From Bacillaceae bacterium OF18-1A (GTDB taxonomy: Bacteria; Bacillota; Bacilli; Bacillales; Bacillaceae_G): DNA of 64,000 nucleotides. The stretch lies in the NCBI GenBank assembly GCA_027694045.1, contig JAQEWB010000001.1, positions 186,001 to 250,000 on the forward strand. The letters are read 5' to 3'. Shown piece after piece: positions 16,323-62,996 of the stretch. The first letter of the stretch is position 1, and each line of letters begins with the position of its first letter. The position numbers and the translations under genes are program-made. Under the pieces are notes generated by a model, which did not search any database, was not told where the DNA came from, and worked only from the letters and a program-made list of their open reading frames with translations.

Positions 16323-16484
16323 TTGAAGATACAGAGAGAAATAAAGCAGGATTAGGAAAAATCTAAGTGTATGAAAATCAAGTCTCGATTTAGATTTTAT
16401 ATCATTTTGTTAGAAGAAATGTAAATATTATGTAAAAAATGTTAATTTAAAGAATATTCCAACTTTCTTTTTTGTTTTTTCTTA

Positions 16485-16525
16485 TATAATGAGGGCACGG
16501 CCTGAAAATACTTAAATATTTAAGT
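16485..16525 (+). promoter_or_regulatory. Promoter and palindromic operator of the secreted-peptide gene
   Basis: A -10 box TATAAT lies at 16485-16490, with a T-rich -35 region. About 20 bases downstream is the perfect 16-base palindrome ACTTAAATATTTAAGT (16510-16525), at or just after the expected start of transcription. A repressor-binding role is inferred. Confidence 0.55.
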
Positions 16526-16556
16526 GAATATTTTAAACAAGGGGGATTAGGTATAT

Positions 16557-16925
16557 ATGAAAAGCCTAATGAAAAAGACATTAGCTACTTTGGGTATAAC
16601 AGCTTGTGCAGTAGGTATGGTTTCTTCAGTCTCATTTGCCTCAATTAGCTGGGATTCAAGTGCAGCATGGGTAGGTTCCGGAGCTAAAGCTTCTGCATCT
16701 GCTTATACGGCGAAAACAAATGAATCTCATTATTATAAGATGACTGTAAGTGCTCGTTTTAATGATGGATCCTCAGGTTTTAGGCAATTGCCTAATGCTT
16801 CAAGTTCTGATCGTGTAAATGTTAATTTTACATCAAACGGACCGGTAAGCAGTGGTAACTCATCCCATGAATGGATAATGGTTGGTGATAGTGCGTACAC
16901 ATCGAAGGTCATGACAATAAAGTAA
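16557..16925 (+). CDS. Secreted serine-rich peptide, candidate bacteriocin-like precursor
   Basis: The 122-residue precursor has a basic N-terminus and hydrophobic core (residues 7-27) ending SVSFA before SISWDSS, a good signal-peptidase I site after residue 28. The predicted 94-residue mature part is rich in Ser, Asn and Gly and has no cysteine. ITAC at residues 14-17 could instead be read as a lipobox, but the hydrophobic core runs well past it. The ATG follows CAAGGGGGATTAGGTATAT. It precedes two FtsX-like permeases and an ABC ATPase, an order found in lactococcin 972-type bacteriocin loci. Sequence similarity to lactococcin 972 is weak at best, so the function is inferred from context. 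Confidence 0.6.
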   Translation: MKSLMKKTLATLGITACAVGMVSSVSFASISWDSSAAWVGSGAKASASAYTAKTNESHYYKMTVSARFNDGSSGFRQLPNASSSDRVNVNFTSNGPVSSGNSSHEWIMVGDSAYTSKVMTIK

Positions 16926-16944
16926 GGACTATACAAACAATAAT

Positions 16945-16989
16945 AAAAACCGTGAAAAAAAGGACCTATACCTCTTTCACGGTTTTTAA
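16945..16989 (+). terminator. Terminator between the peptide gene and its ABC transporter
   Basis: AAAACCGTGAAA pairs with TTTCACGGTTTTT around a 20-base loop. Partial read-through would give high peptide and low transporter expression from one promoter. Confidence 0.75.
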
Positions 16990-17003
16990 AATTCGGAGGA
17001 TAT

Positions 17004-18098
17004 ATGAATTTAGTATTAAAAGAAATAGCGGTGAACAAAAAAATATTCATTATGTTATTTATTGGGTTTGTATTAACGATATTGCCAATACTTATAGCTA
17101 TATCTACTCGAGATTATTATGATGAGAACTATTATGATAGTAAAAATGGTTATTTCAATTATTACTACTCCATTCAGCTTACTAATATGGGGGAATTAAA
17201 TTTCAAAGAATTTCAAATGTTAGCAGAAGCTGATTTCATAAACTCTAGCGTTATTACAAATGATATTAGTACAAATATTCCAGATATCGGTCGTGTGACT
17301 ATCATTGGTCTTATTAATCAGAATTGGTTCCCACCTTTATTAAAAGGTTCTCACATAAAGCAAGGGGAAGAAAATAATGTAATTATAGGAAAGAAAATTT
17401 ATAAAGATTCTGTAACAATAAAATTATTTAATAAGGAATATACAGTTAAAGGTGTGGGTGGAGCAAATACAGGAGATGAATATAATTATAAAATTTACGT
17501 CTCGCTAAATGATATGCCAGATGAGGTGAAACGAAGTATACAGAATGAAAATACATTTCAAATGATAGTTAGGTCTAACGGGGATCCTAAAAAGGAGATA
17601 GACAATTTCATTCAGCATGTTAAGCAGAAGAAAAAAGATACAAATGTCAAAGTGATAAATGAAAAAGAGAATTATGATAAAGAAAAAAACTCAAGTCACG
17701 CAGTGGAAGAATTGCTAAGTTTTCCATATAGACTCCTTTTCATAGCTTTAATTAATTGCATAATTGTAAGTTATTTTTGGATTTACACGAAGAAAAAAAG
17801 TCTATCACTCAGGAAAGCCTTGGGAGCAAGTAGCTTGAATCTTTTTATATTTATATTTAGTCAACTATTCATATGTGCAATCACAGCAGCAGCCTGTGCA
17901 ATAGGTATACAATGGATTTTAAGCATTTTGAGTACAACGATTTTAGAATATACAAGTTATAGCATTAGTTTCGGTTTTTTCCATATTGTAATGAGTATAT
18001 TTAGCGCTTTTTCTATATCTTTCATTACCGCTTTCATACCATTCATCTATGTGTTAAAAAGTGAACCTGCTAAAACTTTGAAGGAGTCAAAAATATGA
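17004..18098 (+). CDS. FtsX-like ABC transporter permease, first subunit
   Basis: The 364-residue protein has one membrane segment at residues 12-30, a large extracytoplasmic domain (about 35-240) and three C-terminal segments (about 248, 290 and 335), the MacB/FtsX layout. These mechanotransmission permeases do not usually transport through the membrane; they handle peptides or lipoproteins at its outer face. The segment KKSLSLRKALGAS before the third segment is the typical FtsX coupling region. The ATG follows TTCGGAGGATAT. The stop overlaps the next start in an ATGATGA arrangement, showing translational coupling. Confidence 0.8.
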   Translation: MNLVLKEIAVNKKIFIMLFIGFVLTILPILIAISTRDYYDENYYDSKNGYFNYYYSIQLTNMGELNFKEFQMLAEADFINSSVITNDISTNIPDIGRVTIIGLINQNWFPPLLKGSHIKQGEENNVIIGKKIYKDSVTIKLFNKEYTVKGVGGANTGDEYNYKIYVSLNDMPDEVKRSIQNENTFQMIVRSNGDPKKEIDNFIQHVKQKKKDTNVKVINEKENYDKEKNSSHAVEELLSFPYRLLFIALINCIIVSYFWIYTKKKSLSLRKALGASSLNLFIFIFSQLFICAITAAACAIGIQWILSILSTTILEYTSYSISFGFFHIVMSIFSAFSISFITAFIPFIYVLKSEPAKTLKESKI

Positions 18099-19360
18099 TG
18101 AGAATAAAAAGCGCTGTAATAGCTTTAAAAAAGAGATTTTTATTTTCACTGCTGCTCCTCATACAATTTACATTTGGATTATCAACTATAACGAGTTCTA
18201 TTAATGTATTTTCGAATTTATACTATCTCAATGACAATTCCAGTTCGGTATTAGATTTGAACAACACATACTTAATTTCTTTCGATATGACTACAGATAG
18301 GTTAAGAAGTGATCAATTCAATAAAGAGCAAATTCAACAGATTTATAATAAAATTCAACAAAATAAAGATGTGATTTCATTTGGAACATACGAAGAGAGA
18401 ATAATAGAATTAGAATCGAGTAATAGATTACTTAAAAATAGTATGCTTGCTGATTTGAAAAATAAAACTTTTCATGATGAAAGACCTACTATTAATTCGA
18501 TCCTAGTAGATGAAAACTATTATAGATTACTTGATTTTTCTTTCAAAAATGGTAAAGGGTTTTCACGCCAAGATTTTCAAAAAAAAGGTGAAGAGAAAAT
18601 GAATGTGTTAGCTGGTTCTTACTTTAAAGAATATTTTCAAGTAGGGGATACAATTAATAATCGATATACAATTATCGGTTTTTTACCAGAAAATAAATTC
18701 ATTGTAAATAATAATTCAACAAATACATATTTAAAGCTGGATAAAGCGATGATACTGCCTATGTCATCTGAAATGTATGGAGAATATGAATCAATGTTTT
18801 TAAGGTTGCATCAAAGTACCGTATTAACTTTACGAAAAGGTGCAGATGTAAAGGAATTACAAGAAACAATTCAACTTAAAGGAAATAGTGTTACGTTGCA
18901 TTTAAAAAAATTGGAAGAAGAAATAAGTAAAGATATTACGGTTAATAGCTACTCTGAAATCCCGCAGCTTATAGTAGGAATACTATTTATTCTATTTTCA
19001 ATAGCAGGAATTGTTGTAACCACTATCGTCTCTATTATGATGAGGAAAAGGGAATTCGGAATAAAAATGGTTCTTGGAGAAAGTAAGATTGGAGTTTTTA
19101 TTCAAATTGTTTTAGAAAATACTATAGTAGGAATAGCTGGTTTCGGAATGGCATTAGCGTACTTTTCATTGAGATATGGGGCTCTTCTACAAACAGCAAA
19201 AGACCTAAATGTGGCATCTGTATTAGACTTTAAATTAAATTTACCAATATTATTTTTAGTATTCCTATTCTTACTGTTTATCATCATAGTTTCAAACTTT
19301 ATAGTTTTCTTATTTATTAGAAAACTCGAACCGAAAACATTAATAGGTGGGATGGAATAA
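18095..19360 (+). CDS. FtsX-like ABC transporter permease, second subunit
   Basis: The 421-residue protein repeats the layout of its neighbour: one N-terminal segment (residues 15-37), an extracytoplasmic domain to about residue 285, and three C-terminal segments (about 290-315, 340-360 and 385-410). MMRKREFGIKMVLGESKIG is the conserved FtsX cytoplasmic loop. With the first permease it probably forms a heterodimer served by the downstream ATPase. It may export the adjacent secreted peptide or protect the cell from it. Its start overlaps the previous gene by four bases and its stop overlaps the ATPase start by one. Confidence 0.8.
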   Translation: MMRIKSAVIALKKRFLFSLLLLIQFTFGLSTITSSINVFSNLYYLNDNSSSVLDLNNTYLISFDMTTDRLRSDQFNKEQIQQIYNKIQQNKDVISFGTYEERIIELESSNRLLKNSMLADLKNKTFHDERPTINSILVDENYYRLLDFSFKNGKGFSRQDFQKKGEEKMNVLAGSYFKEYFQVGDTINNRYTIIGFLPENKFIVNNNSTNTYLKLDKAMILPMSSEMYGEYESMFLRLHQSTVLTLRKGADVKELQETIQLKGNSVTLHLKKLEEEISKDITVNSYSEIPQLIVGILFILFSIAGIVVTTIVSIMMRKREFGIKMVLGESKIGVFIQIVLENTIVGIAGFGMALAYFSLRYGALLQTAKDLNVASVLDFKLNLPILFLVFLFLLFIIIVSNFIVFLFIRKLEPKTLIGGME

Positions 19361-20031
19361 TGAGTTTAATTGTATTGAAAGACATTAAGAAGGTGTATAG
19401 TAACAAGAATTACAATACGTTCGCGTTAAACGGTATAAACTTAACGATAAATAAGGGCGAAATGATAGCGATAATGGGTCGATCAGGTTCAGGGAAAAGT
19501 ACCCTATTAAATGTTATAGGGCTAATTGATATGCCAAATGAGGGTGAATATACGTTAAATGAAAAAACATTAACTGAAATAAGAGCAAATAAAGTTCATA
19601 AAACAAGAAATGAAATGATCGGATTTATTTTTCAATATTTTGCGTTGTTAAAAGAACATACTGTACTGGATAATGTGGCACTACCACTCACATATAGAAA
19701 GCTAAAGCAACGGGAAAGAGAAAATAAGGCGAAGTTCTATTTAGAAAAAGTAGGATTAAAAGAACATATGCATAAAACACCCGACGAGCTATCAGGTGGA
19801 CAACAGCAGCGCGTCGCAATTGCAAGAGCGTTAGTAGGTGAACCAGAATTAATATTGGCAGATGAACCGACCGGAAATTTAGATAAAAAAACAGGAGAAG
19901 AAATTATGAATTTGCTATTACAACTGAATGAGGAAGGACGAACAATTATTATTGTAACGCATGATATGGAAGTAGCGAATCAGTGTAATAGAATCATTGA
20001 GTTAGTTGATGGGGAAGTTGTGCGGAGTTAA
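19360..20031 (+). CDS. ABC transporter ATP-binding protein (MacB/LolD type, bacteriocin-transporter-like)
   Basis: The 223-residue ATPase has Walker A GRSGSGKST at residues 40-48, the signature LSGGQQQR near 142, and Walker B LILADEPTG near 163, followed by the H-loop VTHD. It is a single-domain ATPase of the LolD/MacB subgroup that pairs with FtsX-type permeases. In lactococcin 972-type loci an ATPase of this size is the last gene, as here. The ATG overlaps the stop of the second permease and follows GGTGGGATGGAATA. A terminator follows at 20092. Confidence 0.88.
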   Translation: MSLIVLKDIKKVYSNKNYNTFALNGINLTINKGEMIAIMGRSGSGKSTLLNVIGLIDMPNEGEYTLNEKTLTEIRANKVHKTRNEMIGFIFQYFALLKEHTVLDNVALPLTYRKLKQRERENKAKFYLEKVGLKEHMHKTPDELSGGQQQRVAIARALVGEPELILADEPTGNLDKKTGEEIMNLLLQLNEEGRTIIIVTHDMEVANQCNRIIELVDGEVVRS

Positions 20032-20091
20032 AGAATTAATGAACAGAATGAGAATCAGCAATTCGGTTAAAATACAATTATTTTTAAATTT

Positions 20092-20133
20092 AGAAGCCAT
20101 CTTGATTAATTTTTCAAAATGGTTTCTTTTTTG
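20092..20133 (+). terminator. Terminator of the peptide/ABC transporter operon
   Basis: AGAAGCCAT (20092-20100) pairs with ATGGTTTCT (20119-20127), with one G-U pair, followed by six T residues. Confidence 0.65.
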
Positions 20134-22892: not shown

Positions 22893-24836
22893 TTAATAAG
22901 CCTTCAACACATGAAGCAAATAATCTTTCCGGTTCAGCGGATTATAATCAACACGTTTTCGAGTAGGGAAGGGAGTCGTTAGCTTAGTGAAACCAGCTGG
23001 CTTCGTTGTAAATATACCTTCTCCTTCTGTAAAGGAATGAAGCATGCGTTTAAAATTCTCTGTTTTCGCAACAGGTAATGAACCTGTTAATTGATAAGAA
23101 TCATTATTGAATATAGGCTCTGCAAAAGTTGCTGGAATGGCAGCGAGCTTATACATCGCGGTACGAATTGCGTGCTCCGGTACAGTTAATTCAAACTCAT
23201 TTACTGGTTCATATACATATGTTTCAGCTTGCTTTAAAGCATCCATTAAAACGAGCGGTGTTAAGTTTCTAAAGTCACTCGCTGTTGTGACAGGACTAGC
23301 ATAACCTGTATGTGTTAGAGTGACGATAATATCCGTAACTTCCCAACCGTATAAACCTTGTTTTAACGTTTGGAATACAGTATCTTCAATCGCTTTATGA
23401 AATGCTAAAGGTAGTGAGCCAAGTTCAACGCCTAATTTATATGTTATGCCAGAATTAAGTTCACCAAGCTCCACATTGAACCCGATTGTGGCGTAAAAAG
23501 GATTCGCTTTTTCACCCATTACTTCAATGCTATTACCTACGCCAATTGGTTTCTCAATACACACAACTCGTGTATTTGAAAAAGTAACCTGCAAATTATA
23601 TTTCTCATAAAGTGTAGTTTCAATTACTTCTTTTTGTACTTCACCGAAAAGGCGAATATATAGTTCATTATGAACATCGTCTTTCCACACTTGAATGAGT
23701 GGATCTTCTTCACATAGTTCCATAAGTGCAGCGTATAAATCATGAATTCGTTCTTTAGGTACTGCATCAATGGCTGCTTCCATTTGTGGTTCGGCAAAGT
23801 GAATGTCTTTTATATAATCAGTTCGTTCACCGATAATATCACCAATTTTAATATCATTCAGTCCCCACACTTTGCAAAATTCTCCACTAGGAACGGTAGA
23901 AATTTGAATGGCATCTCCATTATGAAATATGCACATTTTTTTAATCTTTTCCTTATGTGGTAGAGACTCATTTCGCTGAATATCCACATATTTTCTAATG
24001 TGTAAACTACCTGAAAAAAGTCTTACATAAGCAATCTTTTCTCCAGAAGGTTCACGTTCAATTTTAAAAACAACACCAGCTAATTCTTCATCTGGAGACG
24101 AATTATTAGCTGGAAGTAAGGCTGGAGTATTTTCAAGTAGTTCAGTTACTCCTATACCCGTCAGTGCTGAACCGAAGAAGATCGGATACAGATTTGCTTG
24201 TTGTATTTGTTTTTCAAGTTCTTCTCTTAATAATGTGTCCGTTACGATTTCGTTATTTACATATGACTCAAGTAATGATTCATTATAAGGTGCTAATCGT
24301 TCTATACAATCGTCATATGATTTATATTCAATAATACGAGCTTCCTTTGTTCCTTCGTTTTGGACAGAATAGAAGGGGAATGCTTCATTTGAAAGAATCG
24401 TTTTTATATGCTTTACAACTTTTTCAGTATTTGCGCCACTACGATCAATTTTATTAACAAATAAAATAGTCGGTATGTTGAGTTTCTGTAATGTCCGCAT
24501 TAAAATCTTCGTTTGTGCTTGCACACCCTCAACGGCAGAAATAACTAAAATCGCACCGTCCAAAACGCGGAATGATCGCTCCACTTCAGCGATAAAATCA
24601 GCGTGTCCAGGTGTATCAATGACATTTACTTTTATATCATCAATAAAGAAAGAAACGACAGATGCTTTAATCGTAATGCCGCGTTGTCTTTCTAATTCCA
24701 TTGAGTCAGTTTGTGTGCTTCCACTATCAACTCGGCCAACTTCTTTAATCACATTCGTTTCATAAAGAATACGCTCAGTCAAACTCGTCTTGCCAGCGTC
24801 TACGTGCGCGACAATCCCTATATTTATTGTTGTCAT
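22893..24836 (-). CDS. TetM/TetO-like ribosomal protection GTPase
   Basis: The 647-residue protein is close to the usual 640 residues of this family. GTPase motifs are AHVDAGKT (residues 10-17), DTPGH near 74 and NKID near 128. The domain IV region (YASPVTTASDFRNLTPLVL) corresponds to the ribosome-contacting loops of Tet(M)-type proteins. These EF-G paralogues remove tetracycline from the ribosome using GTP. Whether this chromosomal copy gives resistance is unknown. The start follows ATGAGGATATTGATAT. A palindrome in its promoter and an overlapping upstream ORF suggest controlled expression. Confidence 0.87.
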   Translation of the reverse strand: MTTINIGIVAHVDAGKTSLTERILYETNVIKEVGRVDSGSTQTDSMELERQRGITIKASVVSFFIDDIKVNVIDTPGHADFIAEVERSFRVLDGAILVISAVEGVQAQTKILMRTLQKLNIPTILFVNKIDRSGANTEKVVKHIKTILSNEAFPFYSVQNEGTKEARIIEYKSYDDCIERLAPYNESLLESYVNNEIVTDTLLREELEKQIQQANLYPIFFGSALTGIGVTELLENTPALLPANNSSPDEELAGVVFKIEREPSGEKIAYVRLFSGSLHIRKYVDIQRNESLPHKEKIKKMCIFHNGDAIQISTVPSGEFCKVWGLNDIKIGDIIGERTDYIKDIHFAEPQMEAAIDAVPKERIHDLYAALMELCEEDPLIQVWKDDVHNELYIRLFGEVQKEVIETTLYEKYNLQVTFSNTRVVCIEKPIGVGNSIEVMGEKANPFYATIGFNVELGELNSGITYKLGVELGSLPLAFHKAIEDTVFQTLKQGLYGWEVTDIIVTLTHTGYASPVTTASDFRNLTPLVLMDALKQAETYVYEPVNEFELTVPEHAIRTAMYKLAAIPATFAEPIFNNDSYQLTGSLPVAKTENFKRMLHSFTEGEGIFTTKPAGFTKLTTPFPTRKRVDYNPLNRKDYLLHVLKAY

Positions 24837-49440: not shown

Positions 49441-51096
49441 ATGATGAATCTTAGTAAGAAGGTGATGGGATTAACGATAACCTTAAGTTTATTAGGAACA
49501 GGCATAATAATGAAAGATAGTACGGTAAGAGCGAATGTAAAAAAAGAAGAACACCAACCGAAAAATGTAATTATGATGGTTATGGACGGAACGAGTTCTT
49601 CAGTTACAACATTAGCGCGATGGTATAAAGGGGCACCGCTTGCATTAGATGAAATTGTAACAGGAGGTGTTCGTACGTATTCGGCGGAGTCAGCTATTAC
49701 AGATTCGGCGCCGGCAGCTACTGCATTAGCAACGGGAAATAAATCCAATTCAAACTATGTTGGTGTACTTCCTTCTATTGTAAATTCACCTAGTGTAAAG
49801 CCAATAAAAGAAGAGGACAAGTTACGGCCAGTTGCCAACGTTTTAGAAGGTGCAAAGCGTTCGGGTCGTTCAACTGGAATTGTTGCTACATCTGAAATTC
49901 AGCATGCTACGCCAGCTGGTTTTTCGGCTCATCATGCAAATCGTAAACATTTTGAGTTGCTTGCGAAGCAGCAAGTGTATCAAAATATAGACGTCGTATT
50001 AGGCGGAGGAAAAGCAGCACTTTTGCCTGTAAAGAGCAATGGAATTCGAAAAGATGATGAAGATTTAGTGAAAGTGATTCAAGATAAAGGATATGACTTC
50101 GTTGAAACAAAGGATGCGTTATTGAACTCCAAATCTCATAAAATTTGGGGCGCTTTCTCGCAGACGTCGCTTGCGTTTGATATGGACCGTGAGGCAACTC
50201 ATCCAGAGCAACCGACACTTTCTCAAATGACAGAAAAAGCAATTCAAACATTATCAAAAGATAAAGATGGATTCTTTTTATTTGTAGAAGGTAGTAAGCC
50301 AGACTGGGCAGCACATGTGAATGATCCAATTGGGATGATTAGTGATGTGTTGGCATTTGATAATGCAGTTGCAAAAGCTCTGCAATTTGCAAAAAAAGAT
50401 GGGAATACGTTACTCATCGCTGTAGCTGATCATGGTAATAGTGGAATTTCTATTGGGAATAAAAATACGACGAAAAAATATAAGACGACACCGGTAGAAG
50501 CTTATATTAATCCACTGAAAAAGGCAGAAACGACACTTGAAGGTGCTATAAATAAACTAAAAGGTGATTTATCTAATATAGAAGATGTAGCCACACTATA
50601 CGGTTTAGAACATTTAACGTACGAGGAAAAAGAAAAATTAAAAGCAGCTCAAAAGAAAAGTGATGTAGGTCCAATTCTTACTACATTATTGGCTAATCGT
50701 GCAAACATTGGTTTTACGACAGGCGGTCACACAGGTGAGGATGTATTTTTATATTCTTATGGACCTCAAAAGCTAAAAGGATTCGTCCAAAATACGGACA
50801 TTGCGAACACAATGGCGAAAGCAATGGGCTTTCATTTAGACGAGTTAACAAACAGAATATTTATAGAAAGTAAATCAGCTTTTGAAAGAATTGGTGCAAC
50901 TGTAACGATTAATAGAACGGATGTTACAAATCCAGTGGTTGTAGTGAAGCATAATAAAGTAAGTGCCCAATTATTTGTTAATAAAAATATAGTTCGTATT
51001 GATGGTAAAGATCATGAATTAGGAAGCATCATCGTTGAAAGTAATGGAAAGTTCTATGTACCAGAAGAAGCAATACATTTGTTGATAAAGTATTAA
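49441..51096 (+). CDS. Secreted alkaline phosphatase (PhoA family)
   Basis: The 551-residue precursor has a signal peptide (residues 1-32, cleavage near VRA). Catalytic motifs are MMVMDGTSSS near 42, the nucleophile segment ITDSAPAATALATGN near 84, and the metal ligands in VADHGNSG near 325 and TTGGHTGEDV near 425. The last 70 residues (VNKNIVRIDGKDHELGSIIV) look like a copper amine oxidase N-terminal-type stalk domain used for cell-surface attachment. It releases phosphate from organic esters outside the cell, which fits the phosphoesterase importer operon just upstream. The ATGATG start follows GGAGGGACAGTA. Confidence 0.9.
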   Translation: MMNLSKKVMGLTITLSLLGTGIIMKDSTVRANVKKEEHQPKNVIMMVMDGTSSSVTTLARWYKGAPLALDEIVTGGVRTYSAESAITDSAPAATALATGNKSNSNYVGVLPSIVNSPSVKPIKEEDKLRPVANVLEGAKRSGRSTGIVATSEIQHATPAGFSAHHANRKHFELLAKQQVYQNIDVVLGGGKAALLPVKSNGIRKDDEDLVKVIQDKGYDFVETKDALLNSKSHKIWGAFSQTSLAFDMDREATHPEQPTLSQMTEKAIQTLSKDKDGFFLFVEGSKPDWAAHVNDPIGMISDVLAFDNAVAKALQFAKKDGNTLLIAVADHGNSGISIGNKNTTKKYKTTPVEAYINPLKKAETTLEGAINKLKGDLSNIEDVATLYGLEHLTYEEKEKLKAAQKKSDVGPILTTLLANRANIGFTTGGHTGEDVFLYSYGPQKLKGFVQNTDIANTMAKAMGFHLDELTNRIFIESKSAFERIGATVTINRTDVTNPVVVVKHNKVSAQLFVNKNIVRIDGKDHELGSIIVESNGKFYVPEEAIHLLIKY

Positions 51097-51340: not shown

Positions 51341-53728
51341 TTGAAAAAGAATAAGAAGTTAAAACCTTTATCAGTATTAGCAACAGCGGCAGTGCTAAGC
51401 AGTACTTTTGCTTTTGGAAGTCATGCAGCGTATGCTGAAACACCAACACCATCTATACCAATAGATGAACATGTAATACCGGAGGAACGTTTAGCGGAAG
51501 CGCTAAAAGAACGAGGAGTAATTGCCCCATCTGCATCACAATCTGAGACATCAAAGGCTGTCGAAAAATATGTTGAGAAAAAGAAGGGGGAAAACCCTGG
51601 GAAAGACATCATAAAAGAAGATAATCTTACACAAGAAGCTTCTGATTTTATGAAAAAAGTTAAAGATGCAAAAATGAAGGAAAATGAACAGGCGCAGCAG
51701 CCAGCAGTAGGACCTGTAGCTGGGCAAGGCGCAGGATTGAATCCTGGAAAATTAAATGGAAAAGTACCTACTACACCAGCGAAGCAAGAAGATTACAATG
51801 GGGCTGTTCGAACAGATAAAGTACTTGTTTTACTCGTAGAATTTAGCGATTTTAAGCATAATGATATTGAGCAAAGACCAGGATACATGTACTCTAATGA
51901 TTTTAATCGTGAACATTATCAAAAAATGTTATTTGGAGATGAACCATTTACGTTATTTGATGGATCGAAGGTTAATACGTTTAAACAATATTATGAAGAA
52001 CAATCTGGTGGCAGCTACACAGTTGATGGAACTGTAACGGAATGGCTGACTGTTCCAGGAAAAGCTTCAGATTATGGTGCTGATGCGGGGACTGGCCATG
52101 ACAATAAAGGTCCTTTAGGGCCACGTGATTTTGTGAAAGAAGCATTAAAAGCAGCGGTAGCAAAAGGAATCAATTTAGCAGACTTTGATCAATTTGATCA
52201 ATACGATCAAGATGGTGATGGCAATAAGAATGAGCCAGATGGCATAATCGATCATTTAATGGTTGTACATGCTGGTGTAGGTCAAGAAGCTGGCGGCGGT
52301 AAATTGAAAGATGATGCGATTTGGTCTCACCGTTCAAAACTTGGATCAAAGCCATATGCGATTGATGGCACAAAATCTTCTGTTTCAAATTGGGGCGGAA
52401 AAATGGCGGCATACGACTATACAATCGAGCCTGAAGATGGAGCGGTTGGCGTATTTGCACATGAGTATGGTCACGATTTAGGCTTACCAGATGAGTACGA
52501 TACGAAGTATTCAGGAGACGGTGAACCTGTTCAGGCGTGGTCGCTTATGAGTGGTGGTAGCTGGGCTGGAAAAGTTGCAGGAACAGAACCAACAAGCTTC
52601 TCCCCACAAAATAAAGAGTTTTTACAAAAGAATATTAAGGGGAACTGGGCGAACATCGTTGAAGTAGACTATGATAAACTTCGTAATGGCGTCGGCTTTG
52701 CAACATATATAGATCAAAGTGTGACAAAATCAAAACGACCAGGAATCGTTCGTGTTAATTTGCCAGATAAAGATATTAAAAATATCGAATCGGCATTTGG
52801 CAAGAAGTTTTATTACAGCACAAAAGGAAATGAAATTCATACAACACTTGAGACACCAGTATTTGATTTAACAAATGCAACGAATGCTAAGTTTGACTAT
52901 AAAGCGTTCTATGAGCTTGAAGCGAAGTATGATTTCCTTGATGTAAATGCAATTGCAGAAGATGGAACGAAGACACGCATTGAGAGAATTGGCGAAAAAG
53001 ATGTAAAAGGCGGCGCGGATACAACTGATGGTAAATGGGTTGATAAATCATACGATTTAAGCCAATTTAAAGGAAAAAAAGTAAAACTGCAGTTTGAGTA
53101 TTTAACAGACATCGCAGTGGCCTATAAAGGATTTGCATTAGATAATGCAGCTTTAACTGTAGATGGAAAAGTTGTTTTCTCTGATGATGCAGAGGGTCAA
53201 CCAGCAATGACGTTAAAAGGATTTACGGTGTCTAACGGGTTGGAGCAGAAAAAAAATAACTACTATGTAGAGTGGAGAAACTATGCTGGTTCTGACATGG
53301 CGTTACAACAAGCACGTGGCCCAGTATTTAATACAGGTATGGTTGTATGGTATGCAGATCAAAGCTTTACAGATAACTGGGTAGGTATTCACCCAGGTGA
53401 AGGATTCCTAGGAGTAGTAGATTCTCATCCAGAGGCAATCGTAGGGACATTAGATGGACAACCAACTGTGAAGGAAAGTACACGTTATCAAATTGCTGAT
53501 GCGGCATTCTCATTTGATCAAACACCAGCATGGAGAGTAGATTCACCAACTCGCGGTATTTTTGACTATAAAGGATTACCAGGAGTTGCAAAATTTGATG
53601 ATTCTAAACAGTACATTAACAGCACGATTCCAGATGCAGGACGTAAGTTACCGAAACTAGGATTGAAGTTTGAAGTAGTCGGTCAAGCTGAAGACAAATC
53701 TGCAGGGGCAGTTTGGATTCATCGATAA
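51341..53728 (+). CDS. inhA: Immune inhibitor A metalloprotease (M6 family, InhA)
   Basis: The 795-residue precursor has a Sec signal peptide (cleavage near residue 31, HAAYA). A propeptide follows, then the zinc protease domain with [14 protein letters not shown] at residues 374-387 (ligands H374 and H378, catalytic E375). A C-terminal beta-rich region with the VEG-like module is present. InhA proteases are secreted virulence factors of the B. cereus group that degrade host antibacterial proteins. Several paralogues exist and the one here cannot be fixed by eye. The TTG start follows GGGGAGGAAATGCA. Confidence 0.93.
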
Positions 53729-61529: not shown

Positions 61530-61785
61530 TTAAACTAGAAATCGTTGAAGGGAAATAGTACATATGTCTTCTTACGAAAGAGAGTGGAATTCACCGGCTG
61601 AAAGATTCCTCGTATAGAACATATCGAACCTATCCCTGAGTCTTAAATGAAAGTTTAGGCGTTCGCCTGCGTTATAGGCGCCAAGTGGATATCTATGTAT
61701 ATCAATTAAGGTGGTACCGCGGAACAATGACCGTTTCGTCCTTTTTATTTTATTGAGGGCGAAGCGGTCATTTTTATTTTGCTCT
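61530..61785 (+). promoter_or_regulatory. T-box leader, probably proline-specific (CCU)
   Basis: The conserved T-box AAGGTGGTACCGCGG lies at 61709-61723. The terminator follows, GACCGTTTCGTCC with GGGCGAAGCGGTC and a T run (about 61727-61777). The base of stem I pairs GGGAAATAG (near 61551) with CTATCCC (61630-61636). The specifier loop there reads GAACCTA, giving codon CCU (61629-61631) for proline. Uncharged tRNA-Pro would prevent termination and switch on proB-proA. Confidence 0.92.
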
Positions 61786-61892
61786 TTAAATATTACAGGC
61801 GCAGCATTGGTGAAAAGAGATATGGCTGCAAACTGAATGAATAGAAGTGTAATTTATGAAAAACTTTGATTGTAGACTTGGGGGATAAAAAA

Positions 61893-62996
61893 GTGAAAAA
61901 ACAACGAATTGTTGTAAAGATTGGAAGTAGTTCCTTGGCAGCAAGTCATGGAGGCATCTCTAAAGAACAACTTTCAGATCACGTTGCCGCATTGGCAAGG
62001 TTGAAAGAAGAAGGGCATGAAGTTTTGTTAATTACATCAGGGGCCGTTGCTGCAGGTTTTTCTGCACTAGGGTATCCTAGTAGACCTGTGACAATAAAAG
62101 GGAAACAGGCTGCAGCAGCTGTCGGGCAAAGTCTATTAATGCAGGCGTACACAGAGGAATTCCGTAAATACGGTATCGTTACTGCGCAACTATTGCTGAC
62201 GAGAAGTGATTTTTCTAGAAAAGAACAATATAGTAACGCTTACGCTACTTTAGGAGAGCTACTAAACCGTTCTGCTCTTCCGATTATCAATGAAAATGAT
62301 TCCATCTCTTTAGAGGAGCTAACGTTCGGTGATAACGATATGCTATCAGCTTTAGTAAGTGGACTTGTGTCAGCAGATACGCTCATGATTTTTACGGATG
62401 TGAACGGTTTATATGATAAAAATCCTCAAAAAAATACGGATGCGAAAAAATATTATTTCCTTCCTGAAGTTACGGAAGAAATCGCTTCTCTTGCTGGAGA
62501 TGCGGGTTCAAAACTTGGGACTGGCGGTATGAAATCAAAAATCGATGCTGCAAAGATGGCATTATCTCTTGGGGTAAGTGTATTTATCGGAACAGGAAGT
62601 GGACAGGAGAAGTTTTTAGATGTGCTGAAGGGCAAAGGTGATGGAACGTATATCGGCAATGCTCCTCAAAAGGTAATTAAGATGAACAAGCAATGGATCG
62701 CCTTGCATTCACTTGTTAGCGGACAAATTGAAGTAGATGCTGGAGCAGCTACTGCGATCATACAACATGGAAAGAGTTTACTTCCAGCTGGTGTTACGAA
62801 TGTATCGGGATTTTTCCAAGTAGGTGAAGTTGTAGAGGTTATAACGCAACAAGGGCGCGTAATCGGAAAAGGACAATGCAGGTACAATGCAGAGGAACTA
62901 AGAGATTTAAAAGGTATGCAGAGCAATGATATTCAAGCAAGAGGCGAAAGGCATGATTATGAGGTCATCCATAGAGATCATTGGGTTTCATTGTGA
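61893..62996 (+). CDS. proB: Glutamate 5-kinase (ProB)
   Basis: The 367-residue protein has an amino-acid kinase domain ([16 protein letters not shown] at the start, [16 protein letters not shown] near 46, [18 protein letters not shown] near 140). A C-terminal PUA domain runs from about residue 275 ([20 protein letters not shown]). It phosphorylates glutamate for proline synthesis. The GTG at 61893 follows TTGGGGGATAAAAAA; a TTG at 61866 is in frame without a ribosome site. Expression depends on the proline T-box. Confidence 0.94.

What the first reader, a model, noticed from the sequence alone, without database searches (positions are those of the whole stretch)
16485..20133. Candidate bacteriocin-like cassette: secreted peptide, two FtsX permeases, one ABC ATPase
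A 122-residue secreted, cysteine-free, Ser/Asn-rich peptide gene is followed by a terminator hairpin and then three translationally coupled genes for an ABC system with two FtsX-type subunits. The order matches lactococcin 972-type bacteriocin loci, but the peptide lacks clear similarity to that family and the usual long single permease is replaced by two shorter ones. A perfect palindrome overlaps the promoter, so the locus is probably repressed until induced. The peptide could be an undescribed antimicrobial or signalling protein with a self-protection transporter.
Basis: partly seen in the sequence, partly recalled or inferred. Interest (0 to 1): 0.7.

Follow-up and report, generated by a model that had tools for sequence, protein, structure and literature searches.

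The report
Secreted beta-sandwich peptide with self-protection transporter
A Bacillus-like genome carries an undescribed four-gene unit, also found in Paenibacillus and a few relatives, that most likely makes a small secreted protein against rival bacteria together with a membrane pump that protects its maker.

Summary
The four-gene observation holds: a Sec-type 122-aa peptide gene, a strong hairpin, then three overlapping genes for two FtsX-type permeases and a MacB/LolD-type ATPase. The peptide belongs to an unnamed family (36 database proteins) in Bacillus, Paenibacillus, Neobacillus and Rummeliibacillus; no Pfam or NCBIfam model fits. Eight further Paenibacillaceae loci found through permease 1 alone have a peptide gene or remnant upstream (one remnant by eye only) and the same hairpin. 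Among 8 loci with intact transporter genes the peptide is broken in 4 (4 of 7 without the locus first found by its peptide), by different lesions: expected if the pump is immunity. AlphaFold gives a confident seven-strand beta-sandwich. It is not lactococcin 972: peptide, permeases and ATPase miss that family's models, though gene logic and fold class match. The palindrome lies beyond the promoter and is not conserved; a WalR-type box is exact in 6 of 11 upstream regions. Best reading: a separate bacteriocin/immunity cassette that works like lactococcin 972, perhaps under the cell-wall regulator WalR. Killing, target, immunity and WalR binding are inferred. One locus with intact peptide and broken pump argues against.

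The parts
16420..16436 (+). WalR-type box TGTAAA-N5-TGTAAA upstream of the promoter
   Evidence: Exact TGTWAH-N5-TGTWAH, one of 3 in the 64-kb window on both strands; exact in 6 of 11 upstream regions, simulated chance 0.1-1.3% per region; consensus as quoted in PMC9210968 (one passage)
16485..16490 (+). -10 box TATAAT of the presumed promoter
   Evidence: direct reading; not among the consensus promoter hits, so not proven
16510..16525 (.). Perfect 16-bp palindrome ACTTAAATATTTAAGT in the presumed 5' leader
   Evidence: not found in the Paenibacillus loci
16540..16546 (+). Shine-Dalgarno-like AGGGGGA
   Evidence: direct reading
16557..16925 (+). Secreted peptide gene (122 aa): signal peptide about 1-28, mature 94 aa, predicted 7-strand beta-sandwich
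16944..16988 (+). Terminator-like hairpin between peptide and transporter genes
   Evidence: -18.4 kcal/mol, z -5.1; present in 11 of 11 loci aligned, 5 of 13 pairs with a two-sided change kept, 5 pairs with 1-2 sequences broken; not listed by the scan
17004..18098 (+). FtsX-type permease 1 (364 aa, four hydrophobic segments, large external domain)
   Evidence: PF02687 39.3 bits
18095..19360 (+). FtsX/MacB_PCD permease 2 (421 aa)
   Evidence: PF02687 37.1 and PF12704 36.7 bits; overlaps permease 1 by ATGA
19360..20031 (+). MacB/LolD-type ABC ATPase (223 aa), Walker A GRSGSGKS, LSGGQ, LILADE
   Evidence: PF00005
20093..20132 (+). Hairpin with T run after the ATPase gene, likely operon terminator
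   Evidence: direct reading; not listed by the scan (loop longer than it allows)

Best explanation
A bacteriocin/immunity cassette of a kind not in the libraries searched. The peptide is exported by Sec, loses its signal peptide and folds outside as a cationic 94-aa beta-sandwich that acts on the envelope of related cells. The hairpin after its gene cuts most transcripts, so the peptide is made in excess and the downstream transporter at a lower level by read-through. Two FtsX-type permeases pair with the ATPase as a heterodimeric type VII (MacB/LolCDE-like) pump that strips the peptide from the producer's own membrane. A WalR-type box upstream couples production to cell-wall growth. Shown here: anatomy, family, joint inheritance, conserved hairpin and box, predicted fold, recurrent loss of the peptide alone. 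Inferred: secretion, read-through, killing, target, immunity, WalR binding. A lipid II target is analogy with lactococcin 972 only.
For: Of the 10 genomes with permease 1 in 394 of one family, G001 and G002 were already known through the peptide; in the other 8, found by permease 1 alone, a peptide gene or remnant lies directly upstream, clear by sequence in 7 and by eye only in L008. Peptide and permease 1 distances correlate, r 0.74 over 14 pairs, 0 of 5000 shuffles as high (8 of these pairs were joined by equal longest-contig length). Peptide broken in 4 of 8 loci with all three transporter genes intact, by different lesions; one (L015) matches intact cluster P0060 at 100% on both sides of its break. 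In the pneumococcal lactococcin 972-type scb locus 157 of 571 genomes keep only scbBC (PMC11796350, passages). Mature-part pLDDT about 94, seven strands. Hairpin in all 11 loci aligned, with two-sided changes at 5 of 13 pairs.
Confidence: 0.58

Rival explanations
1. Envelope signalling or stress module: the secreted beta-sandwich protein is a ligand sensed by, or acting with, the FtsX-type complex, which transmits a mechanical signal (as FtsEX does to hydrolases); WalR sets its level. No killing.
For: FtsX/MacB-type complexes are mechanotransmitters (recalled knowledge); WalR-type box; peptide as conserved as permease 1; L035 keeps the peptide with a broken pump.
Against: Repeated loss of the peptide with intact transporter genes (4 of 8) is odd if both are needed for one signal; patchy presence (10 of 394 genomes of one family, two of them the seeds).
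Confidence: 0.18
2. Export or processing system: the ABC transporter releases or matures the peptide, which is a surface or matrix protein, inhibitor or binding protein rather than a toxin.
For: Conserved neighbourhood; the rows nearest in fold are domains of enzymes, receptors and adhesins.
Against: The peptide has its own Sec-type signal and so should need no exporter; transporter genes stay intact without an intact peptide in 4 of 8 loci.
Confidence: 0.14
3. A true but very diverged member of the lactococcin 972 family with a permease gene split in two.
For: Same order peptide, permease, ATPase; Sec signal; beta-sandwich class (PMC11796350 passages); window ATPase scores 247.9 bits against TIGR03608, its best NCBIfam hit.
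Against: hhalign probability 3.4% (E 0.013) against four lactococcin 972-type peptides, a small profile; no PF09683 hit among 34 members; ATPase below the cut-off in the 5 scanned, while a real one scores 284.2; permease 2 only 10.6 bits to TIGR01654.
Confidence: 0.07

Closest known systems
Lactococcin 972-type loci (lcn972-orf2-orf3; pneumococcal scbABC)
   Same: Sec-secreted small beta-sandwich peptide, then permease and ATPase genes; transporter genes persist where the peptide is lost (157 of 571 pneumococcal genomes, PMC11796350, passages)
   Different: No detected sequence relation of the peptide; mature part 94 aa versus a 66-residue chain in 2lgn; two permeases of 364 and 421 aa instead of one of 663-763 aa in the five control loci; ATPase below the TIGR03608 cut-off in the 5 scanned
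MacB / LolCDE (type VII ABC transporters)
   Same: FtsX domain, one N-terminal and three or more C-terminal hydrophobic segments, external domain, MacB/LolD-type ATPase; two different permeases as in LolC and LolE (recalled)
   Different: No membrane fusion protein gene in the cassette, Gram-positive setting; dedicated to a peptide gene
JUQZ-1/BLB8 secreted antibacterial protein of Brevibacillus laterosporus (NF053514)
   Same: 351-bp gene with signal peptide, reported antibacterial (PMC11747845, passages)
   Different: One of 34 members matched the model, at E 0.068, not significant; gene neighbourhood not compared

Membership tests
Lactococcin 972 bacteriocin family | Peptide matches PF09683 | tested here: not met
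   No hit for the peptide or any of 34 aligned members at E up to 10, HMMER filters on; hhalign probability 3.4%, E 0.013, against 4 of the 5 PF09683 peptides found
Lactococcin 972 bacteriocin family | Single long permease of TIGR01654 | tested here: not met
   Permease 2: 10.6 bits against a cut-off of 189.35; permease 1 not listed. Controls L025 and L026 score 307.5 and 243.5
Lactococcin 972 bacteriocin family | ATPase above the TIGR03608 cut-off (254.85) | tested here: not met
   233.4 to 247.9 bits in the 5 ATPases scanned (window, L001, L030, L032, L036, of 9 intact ones); control L026 284.2. The window's is only 7 bits short
Lactococcin 972 bacteriocin family | Order secreted peptide, permease, ATPase | tested here: met
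   window; L001 and the other Paenibacillaceae loci, with two permeases
Lactococcin 972 bacteriocin family | Mature peptide a beta-sandwich of the 2lgn topology | tested here: inconclusive
   Beta-sandwich predicted; topology not compared with 2lgn
Lactococcin 972 bacteriocin family | Antibacterial activity through lipid II | not testable with these tools
   needs bench work
Type VII (MacB/LolCDE/FtsEX) ABC transporters | FtsX domain permeases with external domain and few membrane spans | tested here: met
   PF02687 in both, PF12704 in permease 2; 4 and 5 hydrophobic segments called
Type VII (MacB/LolCDE/FtsEX) ABC transporters | ATPase of the MacB/LolD/FtsE class | tested here: met
   best PDB relatives 5xu1, MacB, MJ0796, LolD; NCBIfam LolD, MacB, FtsE models among the best hits, all below their cut-offs
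WalR regulon | TGTWAH-N5-TGTWAH upstream of the promoter | tested here: met
   exact in window and 5 of 10 other upstream regions
WalR regulon | WalR binds and controls the promoter | not testable with these tools
   PhoP-type boxes are similar (recalled)

The most novel reading that the evidence does not exclude
The founding family of a second, unrelated class of unmodified beta-sandwich bacteriocins in Bacilli, with its own heterodimeric type VII immunity pump, and wired to WalRK so that the antagonist is released as the producer builds cell wall.
Probability: 0.35. Interest if true: 0.68.

Novelty: new variant of a known kind. Interest (0 to 1): 0.5.

Why it matters
It names a testable, uncharacterised family of secreted proteins in Bacilli, with homologues in Paenibacillus that can be handled in laboratory strains. 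If active, it would add a second, unrelated beta-sandwich bacteriocin scaffold and a clean case for testing how FtsX-type pumps confer immunity. For lactococcin 972 loci PMC11796350 says the roles of the two transporter genes have not been verified, although plasmids with the whole lcn972 cluster raise the MIC from 12.5 to 800-1600 units (PMC4055356, table passage). A WalR link would connect antagonism directly to cell-wall growth.

Tried and rejected
Lactococcin 972 membership: rejected by models and hhalign. Repressor palindrome at the promoter: wrong place, not conserved. Phage or plasmid cargo: no tblastn match to the peptide in phages or plasmids, none to permease 1 in plasmids, and no confirmed relative of peptide or permease 1 in viral contigs. 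Anti-phage system: PADLOC hits only the ATPase, through generic ATPase models. Fold identity: two models, Foldseek and VIA gave only generic Ig-like sandwiches; 2lgn is not among the rows shown. NF053514 (JUQZ-1), E 0.068 in one of 34 members: not pursued as homology. dN/dS: no test of positive selection was possible, as dS is saturated or not computable for most pairs; a usable close pair is L001-L031, permease 1 dN 0.03 and dS 0.15, permease 2 0.02 and 0.20, ATPase 0.01 and 0.19, which cannot separate time before and after peptide loss.

Rows dropped: A5 has 34 rows; of the 36 proteins, 8 were left out (P0007, P0008, P0009, P0079, P0080 and P0077 as fragments, chimeras or frameshifted products; P0055 and P0058 as copies of L010 and L014). 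The first alignment still held P0007-P0009.

Bacillus cereus group genomes could not be reached: no whole genome is held for the window, genome contigs returned only two loci (its patterns also miss the diverged peptides later found through the permease), and three order-level searches in the same class found no permease 1 (0 of 59, 0 of 42, 0 of 397); the tool warns that such empty answers show nothing without a positive genome. So flanks, palindrome and box were not compared within Bacillus.

Full report
What is there. The four genes stand as described. The 122-aa peptide has one hydrophobic N-terminal segment and no cysteine; after residue 28 the mature part is 94 aa, 10.0 kDa, pI 9.1. A hairpin of -18.4 kcal/mol (z -5.1) separates it from permease 1 (FtsX, 364 aa), permease 2 (FtsX plus MacB_PCD, 421 aa) and an ATPase with intact motifs; the three transporter reading frames overlap. 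The perfect palindrome at 16510-16525 lies downstream of the TATAAT at 16485-16490, not on it; the window has two perfect 16-mers.

Family. One sequence found 9 relatives, a 12-member profile 36, in Bacillus, Paenibacillus, Neobacillus and Rummeliibacillus where a source names the organism; at least five of the 36 are fragments or chimeras. No Pfam or NCBIfam family fits: among 34 aligned members the best scattered hits are E 0.00077 (LpqV, 3 members) and E 0.00025 (PplA, 2 members), which I take for chance or shared signal-peptide character. Residues invariant in the 34 include G40, G42, A49, T51, E56, V64, G71, D85, G100, S102, H104 and W106.

Cassette. Permease 1 searched in 394 genomes of the P. 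taichungensis family gave 10 genomes with a match. Two, G001 and G002, had been found through the peptide; eight are new. In all ten a peptide gene or its remnant sits just upstream, but in L008 the remnant is a stretch of about a dozen residues seen by eye, and tblastn finds nothing there. Peptide intact: L001, L010, L011, L013, L014 (5 of 10). Broken: L008 (only that scrap left), L009 (no ATG, frameshift), L012 (start of the signal region lost), L015 (frameshift in the signal region), L002 (stop at codon 6, pump decayed too). All three transporter genes are intact in 8 of 10: not in L002, and not in L013/L035, where permease 2 stops at 363 aa and the ATPase lies in two frames. So among 8 loci with an intact pump the peptide is intact in 4 and broken in 4; without L001, 3 and 4. 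One locus has an intact peptide with a broken pump, against the simplest immunity model. L015 equals intact cluster P0060 at 100% on both sides of its break, so loss occurs between close strains, unless it is a sequencing error.

Spread. 10 of 394 genomes of that family; 0 of 59, 0 of 42 and 0 of 397 in three orders of the same class, with the tool's warning that an empty answer without a positive genome shows nothing. No match in plasmids, phages or viral contigs. Some copies lie on contigs of 5-7.6 Mb, so at least those are chromosomal.

Control signals. The hairpin is present in the 11 loci aligned, with 5 of 13 pairs showing a two-sided change that keeps pairing, and 5 pairs broken or gapped in one or two sequences. 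The WalR consensus TGTWAH-N5-TGTWAH (as quoted in PMC9210968, one passage) occurs three times in the 64-kb window on both strands, once just here at 16420-16436, and exactly in 6 of 11 upstream regions (window, L001, L009, L010, L011, L013); order-1 simulations give 0.1 to 1.3% per region. L001 and L009 are close relatives, so the six are not all independent. L012, L014 and L015 have one-mismatch versions, whose chance rate I did not estimate; L002 and L008 have none. PhoP boxes look similar (recalled), so a PhoP-type regulator is not excluded. In most Paenibacillaceae loci a TGTGGCCACA-like palindrome follows the -10 region; the window lacks it.

Comparison. Lactococcin 972-type loci are described as peptide plus two genes for presumed immunity and transport, the peptide a Sec-secreted beta-sandwich that interacts with lipid II, and 157 of 571 pneumococcal genomes keep only scbBC (PMC11796350, passages; PMC4055356, passages). 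The logic matches. Membership does not: see the membership table, with real lactococcin 972 loci fetched as controls (5 of 200 class-level genomes have PF09683; one permease of 663-763 aa in each of the five; models met by the two permeases and one ATPase scanned).

Print. No paper in the library holds both 'lactococcin 972' and 'FtsX'; three hold bacteriocin, Paenibacillus and FtsX, none on this by title; of 85 papers with WalR, bacteriocin and Bacillus only 12 were listed and none of these appears by title to concern such a cassette. Subscription papers are not covered, and the seven other papers searches listed many titles that I did not open.

Verdict. Most likely a bacteriocin/immunity cassette of a separate family that works like lactococcin 972 but is not one; confidence 0.58. 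Killing, target, immunity and WalR control remain to be shown. That the window comes from the Bacillus cereus group is inferred from its nearest named relatives.

Noticed in passing
2585-2777: Lysine riboswitch (RF00168, 125.9 bits, - strand) ahead of an amino acid permease gene at 1005-2525.
   Followed up: no
61536-61746: T-box leader (RF00230, 117.6 bits, + strand) ahead of an ORF at 61866-62996.
   Followed up: no
22893-24836: 647-aa elongation-factor-G-like GTPase ORF on the - strand, resembling ribosomal protection proteins (by reading, not scanned against families).
   Followed up: no
51341-53728: Immune inhibitor A-type M6 metallopeptidase (PF05547), preceded by an alkaline phosphatase at 49441-51096.
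   Followed up: no
16780-16795: The window's second perfect 16-bp palindrome lies inside the peptide gene; probably chance.
   Followed up: partly
L002:8001-9540: Saccharibacillus deserti carries a decayed copy: stop at peptide codon 6, permease 1 in pieces, no permease 2 or ATPase found in the 16-kb locus.
   Followed up: yes
L035:3605-5546: One genome keeps an intact peptide and permease 1 with a truncated permease 2 and a split ATPase.
   Followed up: partly
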